From Hypomesus transpacificus (Eukaryota; Chordata; Actinopteri; Osmeriformes; Osmeridae), in contig NC_061061.1 of the NCBI RefSeq assembly GCF_021917145.1, positions 8,565,390-8,629,389 of the forward strand: a stretch of DNA of 64,000 nt, in the 5' to 3' direction. The notes beneath the pieces were generated by a model that searched no databases, was not told the origin of the DNA, and worked only from the letters and a program-made list of their open reading frames with translations. Each line of letters begins with the position of its first letter. Positions within the stretch are counted from its first letter, which is position 1. Positions 14,952-20,738 of this stretch are shown here, one piece after another. Made by a program: the position numbers and the translations under genes.

Positions 14952-15189
14952 TCACTGGGCTTTGAGTTTCTTGCTGTGTGCAGCTCTGTATTCCTGCCCT
15001 GAAGTCTTGCTGACAGCGTAACGCCTGCAGAGGGAACAAAAGGAGGGCTCAGAAGGTTTGGTGTAGAAAGAGGAGAAGAGTGAGGAGGAAAGATGAGAAA
15101 AAAAGGAAAGATGGGGAAGTGTGTCTGACCTCTGGTAGATGGAGGGGAGAGAGAGAGAGAGAGGAGGTGTCTGACCTCTGGTAGAGGTA

Positions 15190-15225
<36 letters not shown>

Positions 15226-18200
15226 GTGTCTGACCTCCTCTGGTAGAGGTAGATGGAGGGGAGAGCGAGGAGGTGTCTGACCTCTGGTAGAGGTAGATGG
15301 AGGGGAGAGAGAGGAGGTGTCTGACCTCCTCTGGTAGAGGTAGATGGAGGGGAGAGAGAGGAGGTGTCTGATCTCTGGTAGAGGTAGATGGAGGGGAGAG
15401 AGAGGAGGTGTCTGACCTCTGGTAGAGGTAGATGGAGAGAGAGAGAGGAGGTGTGTCTGACCTCCTCTGGTAGAGGTAGATGTAGAGGAGGAGCTCGTCT
15501 CTGAAGCAGGACAGCTGGAGGGAGGAGTGGCCACTAAACAGACTGGAGAACACATCATTCACCAGCGTGCTGAGACCCTACAAACACACACACAAACATA
15601 CATACATATACACACATGCACATATGTACATATATGCACGCACAAGTCATCGATATTAGTCGATGAATAAATCCATTAGGATGTCAACTACATTATATCA
15701 TGAGCAGTGTTCAGTGTTAGTGTGTGTGTGTGTGTGGGGGGGGGGGTTGGAGAAATATTTAAATATTGAGGAGGGTCCCATCCATGTACTGTTCCCCACC
15801 ACCCCATCTATCCTCCACCTTAGAAACTCCTTACACCTCTGACACAATTCAAACACCGATAAACGTCTGGTCGATGCGAAGCACTCACCCTGTACACCAG
15901 CACATTCCCCTGCATGTGAGCCACTGACCTCGTCTGTTAGAATGGGCAAGGAGGGAAAAACGGCAGCATTGACTTCACCTCCAGTAGGTGTCCTTCAAAA
16001 CTGAAGAATGACCTTCACATGACCTTGACGGCACTGACCTTGTAGTTGATGAAGAGCTGAGGTGTCATGGACAGGAAACCAAAGGCATACACCCCTGCAG
16101 GAATGGAAACATCTTGATGTGACTAGCAGTTAGCTGGAATATGCTATAGGGATGAGGAGTAGGCTTAACCAATTAGCATCAGTAGGCCTGTTTACTGAAA
16201 TAACATCTTAGCTTTTGGTCATCTTTAAAGACTACTAAGGAATACTGCAGCTACATCTTGAAATATGAGTCATGTTCAACTTACCGGTTATAAGACTGTT
16301 GATAAACCACAAATAATAACTGTGAAGATAAATAAACGGTTTCAGATACGCTAGTCAGCCATCACAGCTACTAATACTGAATGAAACTAGTCAAAGACCA
16401 GATTCATTGCTCACCTCTTATACTTGAGGTAGACCAGAGAGAACATGACTCCACTGATGCAGAGAGGGTACACGAGGTAAGACAGGTATCTAATGGCCTG
16501 GAGAGAGAAACCATTGTCATTACAACCCCTTTTAGTTAGAACATTTTTGAAAGCTTGTGATCCCTACTGGTTTCTGACCTGTGAATCATGTTCCATGGTC
16601 TTCTTCTCAGGTTCGTCCAGCTTACCTAACTGCAAGAACATAGTTTCATTACAATGGACTCATAATAACTGTGTGTTTTTGGCAATTAATATTATTTTAC
16701 TATATAAAATGATCTATGTTGTTTGAATGGAACGTGAAGAATCTGGATCACAATGCACTTACTTCAAATATGGACCTAGACTTTTTCCACTGGAGCTGTA
16801 TCTTGAAGACTTTTTTGACCTTCCAAACCTAGAAAGGAAAAGAAAAGGCAACTTTGAATGGTAGCTTCCTGTCAAGCAGTCTTTCTATCTTTTCTGTCTC
16901 TCCTGCTCTCCCTCTCTCTCTCATTTTCTCTCTCTGTCTCTCCTGCTCTCATTTTCTCTCTGTCTCTCCGGCTCTCTCTCCTCCTCCTCCTCTCCTCCAT
17001 TCAGATGTACCTCTATGATGGAGCCGACAGCGAGCGGCAGCAGGACCAGCACACTGCTGCCCTCCTGCAGGAGGTGGAGCAAGATCACCACAGTGCTGAA
17101 ACACCTCCACAGCACTGACACACACCCACACACGCACACGGTCCGGTTACCAGACAACAAAGAAAGTCCAAATTGAAAACAGGTTCAAGTACTGAGTCAT
17201 TCTGAAAGAGCTGTTTGTATATGTTTCCCTTAAAGATAATAAAAATACTTTACTGTATAAAAATGTTTACTGTTTATATATTTGAGTTGCTCTTCCTTAA
17301 TCCTACATTTTTCTTTTCCCTTGCATGTGCAAAGTAATGGCATCCATTATTCTCACCTGACTTGCGAGACATTCCCACCATGGTTTTTTTCCTCCTCCAG
17401 AAGCTGATGTCATTCTTAAAGGCCAGGAAGTCACACAGAATCTGTCAAATAAACATCAGAGTGTGACATATCAGTCTCGAGTCAGCAGGTATAGGATGAT
17501 GAGTGTATTTTTTGTGGGTGTATTCCGATAAAGTATATATCTTACATGGAAGACTGTGACCAGGGCAGTCAATGCTAGGAGATACAGATTAGTATCCACT
17601 AAGATCTCTTTGATTTCATCAATACTGTCCTCGGTGAAGCCTAGACAAACACACCGACCAAAAGAAGGTTCATATTATTTTTACCGTGATTAACTTACTC
17701 GCTAAACTATATCTGACTAATCAGAATTTACAAAATCTCTAAACTACCTTCTGTGGCTAGGCTCACTAACTTAAACTACCTATCAACTAAAGTCCCAACC
17801 TACTAACTAGTAAGTGTTGACTAAATAGTCTGTACCGTGGCTAAACCCGGCTCTCTCACCAAACTGTCGGAGGGAGTACACCACATCCTGTAGGTGGACC
17901 CAGAAGCGGAAGGTTCTCAAGGAGATGCCCTCGTAGGAGACAGTCAGAGGAAGCTCAGTCAACGTGCCGTTGATTTCCTAAGATCGCAACAACAACACGA
18001 GGATCCTTTTACGTTCTTATCTCATAGGACAATATGATCTGTCATTGCAAGTGTCACCCAGGTCCTGTCGTGTTTGTGAGGACTACCCCACCCACCATAA
18101 GATCCTTCAGTCGGAAACTGAGCTCATCCATCAGAAGTAGGGGCAGATATGTCATCCTCCTCCCGTCCTTGAAACTAGACATACGGAAACAGACAAATGT

Positions 18201-20738
18201 TTCGAATCCAATCATTTTATCACAAATAAAATATTGTTTGTGTGTTTTTCACAATGTCTGTTCTAGTGACTGGGAGATGGCAGGAGACGTACACGGTCAT
18301 GTAGCGTCGTACGTCGCTGGGCAGGTTGCCCCTGGTGAAGGTGAACTCCTCCGCCATGACGGAGAGTCTGAGAGTGGGGCGCCAGAAGGAGACTGAGCCG
18401 TCAGCTCTGGGTACTGGGACGGGGTTAGGGTCCTGGGAGAGGTCAAAGGTGAAGAACAGATAACTAAGAGATTGAGTCATTGTTTATCTCTAGGGTAGCT
18501 ACACTGTATTTAGTTGATTAAATGCCGCCTTCCAATTAACTCCACCCTGGATTAAATTAAATGAATTAAAATCTGATACAGATAAATCAACACAACCTTC
18601 GAATAAACGCTGCAACATTTTACTTGTATTTACCGTAATTCATATGAAATTTGACTACACACAGATACAAGTACAAAGAAACTGTCACTAAATATACCTT
18701 TCTGCATCACTATCAGTGTCCTCGCCGACATTAGTTAGAAACATCTTAATAGCGATCTAACTCTACGCTCACAGTTTATGCTTTGCTGGCTGTTAACATA
18801 TATTGTTGACAGCACGCTTACTTGCTTAATTACACTGTTACGAGACACCAGAGATGTACTAATAAATAAACTTCTCTGTGCTATTCTTGTGCTGTTCTTA
18901 CTTAAATAATAAATAATAAATGCTGCCCTCGTATAAGCGCTGCACTACAAAAACATGTAGTTCCATAACTGCTGCGGCGAATAGAAATATGGTACTTCAA
19001 ACTGCAGATTTATATTAGTTTCAACCTCAGATTGTAGTGCATTGAATGAGCAGTTCCTGTAAAGGGTCATGCCGTTTAAAGAACATACCATTTAAAGCGT
19101 ACATGGATTAAGTTAATTCTGTGTTTTACTTTGAGTTTGCCTGGGCTCTTTTGACTTCTGGGCAGCATCTGGGTGGTCATCTTGGTAGCAAGGTGGACCT
19201 GTCTGCTATCCTCCAGTGGAGACCGTCCAGCCTGGTGTATAAACACCATCACATACAAGGTCCCATTGTTATGAGTCTCCTCTGGCTGGGACACATTCAC
19301 TGTCCTGGAACACAGGCACACAGTGCTGACTCATGAGAAAGGACCGCATGATTGACTTGACCTTGAAAGTAACACAGGCTATTGTTTGTGCTATGTTTGT
19401 AGACTGGTTTTTCTTGAGGATTTTAGTTTGCAATGGAATGAAATGATGCGCTTGGCCTACCTTTCATATTTAGAATGTATGTCAAACTCATCTATTTTGG
19501 TGATGAGGTTAAGCTCACTATGGTCTGGTCTCAAACAGGAGTATATGCTGAGCTGGAATAGAATGGAATAGTAAAATCACAGTACCTATACAGATTAAAA
19601 TTGTTAAGCGTCTCCGTAAGAGCAGAGTCCGTATGCAGTAGACAACTTCAATCACAGTACACAATTGTGAATTAAGACAGCATTACTGACCTGAAGTCGG
19701 GGCCGAGTCGCCAAATAGGAGGATATGCAATGTTCCCCACTCCCGCTTTCGCAAGGTTTGGTGTAGACCAGGGGTGTCAAACATACGGCCCGCGGGCCGG
19801 AACCGGCCCCCAAGGAGGTTCGATCAGGCCCGCAGGATAATTTGAAAGTGGAAAAAATGCATAAAAGACATGGAATTAATATTTTTAATTCGCTGCAATT
19901 CATGGATTATCCGCTAAGGGGCGCACTCTTTCCATCAGAGTAGAAGACAAGCCGCATCACTGAGACAGACTGAAAACAGCAGACGGTATCAATTAATACC
20001 TTGGTCTCTACTAGGGATGGGCGAACGATGCCTTGTGAAGCTTTGATGGTTTCTTCCGGATTGTGCCGGCCCAAAGAGCCGAACTATCGGCGCTTTGAAA
20101 ATGAACAGCGTCATCTAGCAGCCGTTTAAACTGGCTGAATGAGGCGTAGTGGTTGTCTCCGACGGTAGACTACCCTACGTTATTCAATATTTAATTAAGG
20201 CTACATGTGTTCATTTTGATCTGATATTAGTGCTCACACATTAAAATGTTGTGATACATCCGTAGGCCTTTAGAATTATGTCATTTTCTCACAGTAAAAG
20301 TTAAAGAATATCGTACGAGATTCACTGGACTGGGGCGCGAACTTGGGATCCCAGATTCGCATTAACAATATGTAATCGTACATCGCTTTAACCAACTACA
20401 CCACCTAAGAGATCATTACTTGTTAATGCGGTTGGACGGACTTTATACGATATGGTCTTTATATCAATTAAACTAGATAACACAGAAGAAAGACATGATA
20501 TTTTGGTTATTTATAGCAGAGTATGGTATAATTTTAATGGTCCGGCCCACTTGACATCTCCCTAGGCCGTATGTGGCCCACGATGCGAAATGAGTTTGAC
20601 ACCCCTGGTGTAGACAAAGCCATATATCACCCAGCAAGTGTGAAACATGTACACGATAAAAACTCCTAGCAATATTTTAGCCAGAGATGTCCTTTGAAAG
20701 ACACTGTCCGTAGGTTTAGAGTAGCAAGAAGGAAACAT
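14952..20738 (-). CDS. clptm1l: CLPTM1-like transmembrane protein (first exon interrupted)
   Basis: Multipass ER protein of the CLPTM1 family; human CLPTM1L is reported as a lipid scramblase for glucosaminyl-PI in GPI-anchor synthesis. Exons in transcript order: 20738-20608 plus 19760-19691 (one exon split by a transposon), 19552-19461, 19304-19130, 18432-18293, 18174-18096, 17977-17860, 17640-17546, 17441-17357, 17114-17011, 16828-16763, 16629-16579, 16497-16415, 16319-16285, 16094-16039, 15933-15889, 15577-15462 and 15024-14952. With the insertion and one target copy left out, these sum to 1614 nt (537 residues; human 538). Family motifs include HTCWVIYGFVYTKPC, NNGTLYVMVFIHQAG, DELSFRLKDLM, DTNLYLLALT, CDFLAFKNDISFW, LWRCFSTVVILL, AIRYLSYLVYPL, GVYAFGF and CFRDELLLYIYLYQR. 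As sequenced, reading enters the element and stops at TAG after 17 codons (counting the codon that spans the junction), so this allele should be null unless another first exon is used. Confidence 0.9.
15121..15460 (-). repeat. Minisatellite of duplicated exon/splice-donor junctions
   Basis: About seven copies of a unit of roughly 45 bp fill most of clptm1l intron 16 (15025-15461). On the minus strand each unit repeats the last bases of exon 16 (ATCTACCTCTACCAGAG) followed by the donor (GTCAGAC) and a CT-rich spacer. The real exon end at 15462 is the first member; further junctions fall near 15417, 15370, 15325, 15278, 15233 and 15173, of which the one near 15370 has lost its GT (AT). Using the next donor (exon end 15417) adds exactly 45 nt without a stop. 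Confidence 0.88.
19769..20607. mobile_element. hAT-like element inserted in clptm1l exon 1
   Basis: An 839-bp element with perfect 14-bp terminal inverted repeats CAGGGGTGTCAAAC. It is flanked by a perfect 8-bp duplication GTGTAGAC at 19761-19768 and 20608-20615, diagnostic of hAT transposition. The subterminal parts are GGCC-rich. Internally about 20330-20410 (minus strand) resembles a tRNA-derived head (GTAGTTGGTTAAAGC, then AAGTTCGCGCC), and about 20011 has another hAT-like end (AGGGATGGGCGAAC), suggesting a composite element. No intact transposase is seen. Removing element plus one duplication restores the clptm1l frame exactly (GFVY-TKPC). Confidence 0.92.

What the first reader, a model, noticed from the sequence alone, without database searches (positions are those of the whole stretch)
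19761..20615. hAT-like transposon inside the first coding exon of clptm1l
Seen directly: an 839-bp element with perfect 14-bp inverted ends and a perfect 8-bp target duplication splits codon 44 of clptm1l. Leaving out the element and one duplication joins GFVY to TKPC in frame, and the 17 exons then total 538 codons, as in human. With the element present, translation stops after 17 codons (the codon spanning the junction included). No convincing GT-AG pair at its edges would remove it as an intron. Either this is a recent null or polymorphic allele, or the fish uses another first exon.
Basis: partly seen in the sequence, partly recalled or inferred. Interest (0 to 1): 0.75.

Follow-up and report, generated by a model that had tools for sequence, protein, structure and literature searches.

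The report
Young transposon splits duplicate smelt gene
A recently jumped, non-coding hAT transposon sits inside the first exon of a second copy of the clptm1l gene in the delta smelt reference genome; another database sequence shows the same exon without it, so it is most likely an ordinary disabling insertion that only some fish carry.

Summary
In detail: an 839-bp element (19769-20607) with 14/14 matching ends and a perfect 8-bp duplication splits codon 44 of exon 1. The genome is delta smelt, Hypomesus transpacificus. The gene is not canonical clptm1l but the fish paralogue "CLPTM1L-like", 57% identical to an intact canonical copy on another contig. The element belongs to a family with 154 matching left ends and TA-centred 8-bp duplications; this copy has no private mutation, so the jump is probably under about 1 My old. 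The uninterrupted exon is seen in the Osmerus orthologue and in a 79-aa ORF, identical to exon 1 plus intron read-through, held in three unnamed ENA contigs. The reference insertion is best read as a segregating, probably null allele of a duplicated gene. NCBI's protein reads straight through the site although no consensus splice pair removes the element. One odd detail: the element opens an in-frame start with a signal-like N-terminus into the gene; its use is untested and unlikely. Ordinary in kind; useful as a reference genome carrying a hidden null allele.

The parts
19769..20607 (.). non-autonomous hAT element, 839 bp; part of its interior also occurs elsewhere without these ends, so it looks composite
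   Evidence: interior 244-715 at 94% in L037 291-760 without the ends
19769..19782 (+). left terminal inverted repeat, 14 bp
20594..20607 (-). right terminal inverted repeat, 14 bp
19761..19768 (.). target site duplication GTGTAGAC, left copy
20608..20615 (.). target site duplication GTGTAGAC, right copy
20608..20738 (-). exon 1 of clptm1l-like, 5' part, native ATG at 20738-20736 (codons 1-43 and two bases of codon 44)
   Evidence: P0001 N-terminus
19691..19768 (-). exon 1 of clptm1l-like, 3' part (with the other copy of the duplication), ending at donor cag|GTCAGT
20562..20564 (-). premature TAG met by the native frame inside the element (58-residue peptide)
19769..19903 (-). in-frame ORF of the element (ATG at 19903-19901, 45 codons) that runs into exon 1 at VYTKPC; N-terminus MNCSELKILIPCLLCIFSTFKLSC
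14952..19552 (-). exons 2-17 of clptm1l-like, no frameshift or internal stop: 19552-19461, 19304-19130, 18432-18293, 18174-18096, 17977-17860, 17640-17546, 17441-17357, 17114-17011, 16828-16763, 16629-16579, 16497-16415, 16319-16285, 16094-16039, 15933-15889, 15577-15462, 15024-14952
   Evidence: translation of these exons with exon 1 equals NCBI's P0001 letter for letter

Best explanation
A non-autonomous element of the hAT superfamily (Buster-type target sites), mobilised in trans by a transposase made elsewhere, jumped within roughly the last million years into exon 1 of clptm1l-like in the delta smelt lineage, duplicating 8 bp. The allele that happened to be assembled in the reference carries it; alleles without it exist. 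Transcripts of the occupied allele from the native promoter meet a stop after 58 codons in exon 1 of 17, so they should be degraded or give a useless N-terminal peptide: the occupied allele is a (near) null allele. It is tolerated because an intact canonical clptm1l is present, or because carriers are heterozygous. Shown: structure, family, youth, paralogy, existence of an empty-site sequence. Inferred: that the empty sequence comes from the same species, that the occupied allele is null, that redundancy explains tolerance, that a transposase acts in trans.
For: Perfect ends and duplication. 154 left ends with up to 3 mismatches in 41 bases, 0 for the reversed control. 40 full-length places scored (39 independent loci), 39 (38) with perfect 8-bp duplication, every one of those with TA at positions 4-5. 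The window copy differs from the consensus of these 40 at 4 sites, each shared by at least six other copies, so no private mutation; at 3.51e-9 per site per year (rate from PMC12083275, passages seen) zero changes in 839 bp gives an upper 95% age of 1.0 My. The other 16 exons are intact. Osmerus mordax orthologue P0002, 510 of 537 aa identical, has the undivided N-terminus. P0121, a 79-aa ORF listed for 3 ENA contigs, equals exon 1 without the element plus 12 residues of intron read-through, 79 of 79. Each flank matches the assembly at its own place only, so no second haplotype of this site was found there. Intact canonical clptm1l on C4: 538 aa, identical to NCBI's P0105.
Against: No reads or transcripts of delta smelt were available. 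NCBI's own protein for this contig (P0001) ignores the element, which could be taken as evidence of its removal from RNA. No autonomous partner was found. The consensus rests on the copies most like the window copy.
Confidence: 0.82

Rival explanations
1. Fixed pseudogenisation: the insertion is at high frequency or fixed in delta smelt and clptm1l-like is being lost in this species.
For: An intact canonical paralogue could take over; the paralogue is more diverged (52% to the recalled human sequence, against 75% for the canonical copy).
Against: P0121 shows the exon without the insertion, listed for 3 contigs; no further decay in exons 2-17; 27 amino-acid differences to Osmerus against about 185 expected without constraint at Ks 0.15 (rough).
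Confidence: 0.1
2. The element behaves as an intron and is removed cleanly from RNA, as NCBI's protein model implies.
For: P0001, listed on a contig of the same length as C2 (17206656), reads GFVYTKPC without interruption.
Against: All 9 gap placements that restore the exon lack GT-AG, GC-AG or AT-AC ends; the nearest is GT...TG. A gene model can join the parts from protein homology or from reads of empty alleles; which was used could not be seen.
Confidence: 0.04
3. Replacement N-terminus: the element supplies start codon and hydrophobic signal (MNCSELKILIPCLLCIFSTFKLSC...) in frame with TKPC, so the occupied allele makes a chimeric CLPTM1L-like protein.
For: The element's 45-codon ORF from ATG 19903 is open to its end in all 40 scored places, and here it continues in frame into the gene; 12-residue hydrophobic peak 2.58 against 2.36 for the native N-terminus (over 19 residues 1.78 against 1.87); of 4000 Markov-random elements 3.6% give such an open run and 0.1% also such a peak.
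Against: Post hoc; 15 ATGs lie between the native ATG and this one and its context (TCC before ATG) is not a strong one; no promoter evidence was sought beyond sequence reading; the 5 frame-restoring splice pairs all use very weak donors; no chimeric ORF among the 3 hits (sequences seen) and, judged by identity and coverage, none among the 10 hits (sequences of P0122, P0124 and P0128 seen).
Confidence: 0.04
4. Assembly artefact.
For: Reads were not available.
Against: Exact biological signature: full-length element with its own 8-bp duplication, found at none of the 39 other places, TA-centred like theirs; empty orthologue.
Confidence: 0.01

Closest known systems
Tol2-tyr of medaka (hAT insertion in tyrosinase; PMC8151067, passages seen)
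   Same: hAT element in a coding gene of a fish, disabling allele
   Different: Tol2 is about 4.7 kb and codes for its transposase, with a visible albino phenotype; here an 839-bp non-coding element in a paralogue with unknown phenotype
Mar, Buster-group hAT MITE of Drosophila (PMC3517528, abstract start and passages seen)
   Same: short non-coding hAT element, 8-bp nnnTAnnn duplication, recently moved copies
   Different: other host and sequence; ends CAG(G/A)GGTAGGC, 11 bp, against CAGGGGTGTCAAAC, 14 bp, here; a relic full-length copy is known there, none was found here
CLPTM1L, lipid scramblase of GPI biosynthesis (PMC9997660, passages seen)
   Same: PF05602 family; the window gene has the same 16 intron phases as the canonical smelt gene and nearly the same length
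   Different: the disrupted gene belongs to a separate clade (CLPTM1L-like); its function is untested

Membership tests
hAT superfamily, non-autonomous | 8-bp target site duplication | tested here: met
   39 of 40 scored places perfect (38 of 39 loci); L033 not
hAT superfamily, non-autonomous | short terminal inverted repeats (5-27 bp) and total length under 4 kb | tested here: met
   14 bp, 839 bp; criteria from PMC3517528
hAT superfamily, non-autonomous | mobilised by a hAT transposase with matching ends | tested here: inconclusive
   766 Dimer_Tnp_hAT candidates in the genome, 150 scored and listed; 5 loci of 3.4-4.2 kb read; no matching end with up to 2 mismatches, one 3-mismatch word inside the ORF of L060; ends beyond the stretches read are not excluded
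Buster group of hAT | TSD consensus nnnTAnnn | tested here: met
   TA at positions 4-5 in 39 of 39 perfect duplications
Buster group of hAT | transposase falls in the Buster clade | not testable with these tools
   six-frame reading of the element shows no transposase-length frame, and no partner is known
CLPTM1 family (PF05602) | profile match over the curated cut-off | tested here: met
   395.9 bits for the window gene (element left out), 468.6 for the C4 gene, cut-off 22
canonical CLPTM1L | groups with canonical CLPTM1L | tested here: not met
   window gene falls in a 15-row CLPTM1L-like clade, apart from the 14-row canonical clade that holds C4 and the recalled human row (branches 100/100; root at midpoint)
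decayed pseudogene | further disabling changes beyond the insertion | tested here: not met
   exons 2-17 open, all 16 introns GT-AG, translation equal to P0001

The most novel reading that the evidence does not exclude
The occupied allele is not null: the transposon carries a ready-made start and signal-like peptide that replaces the first membrane segment of CLPTM1L-like, so every copy of this family is a latent N-terminal exon that can re-target a gene it lands in.
Probability: 0.04. Interest if true: 0.75.

Novelty: new member of a known kind. Interest (0 to 1): 0.36.

Why it matters
The reference genome of an endangered fish appears to carry a segregating loss-of-function allele that the public protein hides, because that protein is the one of the empty allele. 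Expression or selection studies that rely on this reference could misread the gene. It also offers a simple genotyping marker and a natural test of whether the fish CLPTM1L-like paralogue is dispensable.

Tried and rejected
Intron reading: all 9 placements of the 847-bp gap that restore the exon were checked, none with consensus ends. Frame-restoring GT/GC-AG splices: 5 pairs from 104 donors and 44 acceptors, all to one acceptor inside the element and with very weak donors. Second haplotype or copy of the exon flanks in the assembly: one match each, the window itself; the assembly does hold at least one other locus twice (L005 and L010, 99.5% over 3.8 kb), so retained duplicates are possible in principle. 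Autonomous partner: five hAT transposase loci read (L060-L064) of 150 listed, no matching ends; not exhaustive. tRNA or known RNA inside the element: none with ARAGORN (bacterial settings), and Rfam gave only one match, far below its cut-off (Six3os1_3, E 0.23), across the element's left end. Insertions of other copies in coding exons: spanning ORFs were computed for 40 places (window included); median 64.5 aa against 75 in control positions, so no excess; the 8 longest were printed, five given to Pfam with one hit (Med30); L034, L019 and L022 were left out after a look, as repeats or low complexity. Transcript pieces of delta smelt: none recognised among the 10 hits; P0128 is salmonid-like. 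Literature (open-licence library only): searches listed no paper whose title or abstract start concerns this insertion; one search allowed two of three terms, 15,961 papers, 10 listed, only two of these with 'delta smelt'; in PMC9339312 and PMC13093269 the word clptm1l does not occur. Absence in print is not shown beyond that.

Full report
What is there. Between 19769 and 20607 lies an 839-bp unit whose 14 end bases are perfectly complementary and which is flanked by two copies of GTGTAGAC. On the minus strand it splits codon 44 of an exon that starts with ATG at 20738 and ends at a GT donor after 19691.

Whose genome. A search with the protein of exons 2-17 gave at 100% identity a protein of Hypomesus transpacificus on a contig of 17,206,656 bases, the length of the window's contig C2; the contig of the canonical gene matches in length too (11,481,881, C4). 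The window thus comes from the delta smelt assembly; papers name its reference as GCF_021917145.1 / GCA_021917145.1 (PMC13093269 and PMC9339312, passages seen).

Which gene. The genome search with PF05602 gave 13 matches in three places: C15 (taken to be CLPTM1, not modelled), C4 and the window. A spliced alignment gave the C4 gene as 538 aa, 74.6% identical to human CLPTM1L (sequence recalled), and letter for letter NCBI's P0105. The window gene has the same 16 introns in the same phases, is 57% identical to the C4 protein and 52% to the recalled human one (the aligner added a false last intron there, corrected from the sequence). Its 17 exons, read without the element and one duplication, give P0001 letter for letter. 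In a tree of 29 proteins (28 picked by hand from the 120 listed, and the recalled human one) it groups with Osmerus, salmonid, pike and spiny-rayed fish proteins, apart from the clade that holds C4. The root was set at the midpoint, so the date of the duplication is open. The disrupted gene is an old duplicate whose canonical partner is intact.

The element's family. The first search found 350 candidates and scored 40, all full-length and 99-100% identical. A pattern of the left 41 bases with up to 3 mismatches occurs 154 times (69 + 85), the reversed control 0 times. Of the 40 places (window included) 39 have identical 8-bp duplications, and all 39 have TA in the middle, the consensus given for the Buster group of hAT elements in PMC3517528 (passages seen). 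L005 and L010 are one locus present twice, so the independent count is 38 of 39. The scored copies were the ones most like the window copy, so the low divergence (mean 0.47% to their consensus) describes this subfamily, not the whole family. The window copy has four differences from that consensus, each shared with at least six other copies; six others carry all four (the count of 7 includes the window copy). With no private change in 839 bp, and 3.51e-9 changes per site per year (PMC12083275, passages seen), the upper 95% bound on age is 1.0 My, median 0.24 My. Part of the interior (244-715) occurs at 94% in another place without these ends, so the element looks composite.

The allele without it. 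The Osmerus mordax orthologue has the undivided N-terminus and is 95% identical over 537 residues. More directly, a search with the 79-residue ORF that an uninterrupted exon 1 would form with the start of intron 1 found P0121: 79 of 79 residues, listed for three ENA contigs of at most 2,658 bases. At the protein level it has one copy of the target site and no footprint, as expected for a never-occupied allele. The same search could have found ORFs of the occupied allele and did not, among 3 candidates in all; this says little, since small ORFs are predicted unevenly.

The public protein. NCBI's P0001 for this contig reads GFVYTKPC straight through. Nine placements of an 847-bp gap restore the exon and none has consensus splice ends. 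Whether the model was guided by RNA of empty alleles or by homologous proteins could not be seen. Either way the protein is that of the empty allele.

How it works. Shown: an insertion with its target duplication, young by its lack of private changes, in a gene otherwise intact. Inferred: transposase supplied in trans; loss of function of the occupied allele through an early stop in exon 1 of 17; tolerance through the intact paralogue or heterozygosity. Constraint until recently is suggested by 27 amino-acid differences to Osmerus against about 185 expected without constraint, a rough figure that borrows Ks 0.15 from other osmerid species and assumes 2.3 non-synonymous sites per codon.

The odd detail. 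Read outward on the minus strand, the element opens a frame at ATG 19903 that joins exon 1 at LVYTKPC, because the duplicated bases restore VYT. The peptide starts MNCSELKILIPCLLCIFSTFKLSC and has a hydrophobic peak like that of the native first membrane segment. Variants of this ORF are open to the element's end in all 40 scored places. Fifteen ATGs precede it after the native one, so it would probably need a start of transcription inside the element. I give 4% to its use.

Verdict. A real, young insertion, ordinary in kind, with strong hints that it segregates.

Noticed in passing
L026 (G000:C4:9046862-9047700): Another copy of the element lies within some tens of bases upstream of the likely start codon of med30 (Med30 profile match, E 1.7e-13, in the ORF that spans the joined site).
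   Followed up: partly
L037 291-760: A 472-bp block that makes up most of the element's interior (244-715) occurs at 94% identity without the hAT ends; the 839-bp element looks composite.
   Followed up: partly
window 20394-20475, minus strand: Three perfect A-box-like words in the element's interior (starting at 20475, 20403 and 20394) in a stretch that looks tRNA-like by eye; no B box with up to 3 mismatches beside them and no tRNA call.
   Followed up: partly
L033 (G000:C9:10087561-10088399): Only full-length copy of the 40 scored places without a matching 8-bp duplication; perhaps a recombinant between two copies.
   Followed up: no
L005 and L010 (G000:C158 and G000:C373): The same insertion with the same flanks occurs on two contigs, 99.5% identical over 3.8 kb: a retained haplotype or a recent duplication in the assembly.
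   Followed up: partly
L065 (G000:C31:693000-696300): Two copies about 1.4 kb apart on the same strand, one of them lacking the first 154 bases.
   Followed up: no
L060 (G000:C99:147400-151600): hAT-type transposase with an open frame of 916 aa, with several other places of nearly equal profile score but shorter frames; no matching ends in the 4.2 kb read.
   Followed up: partly
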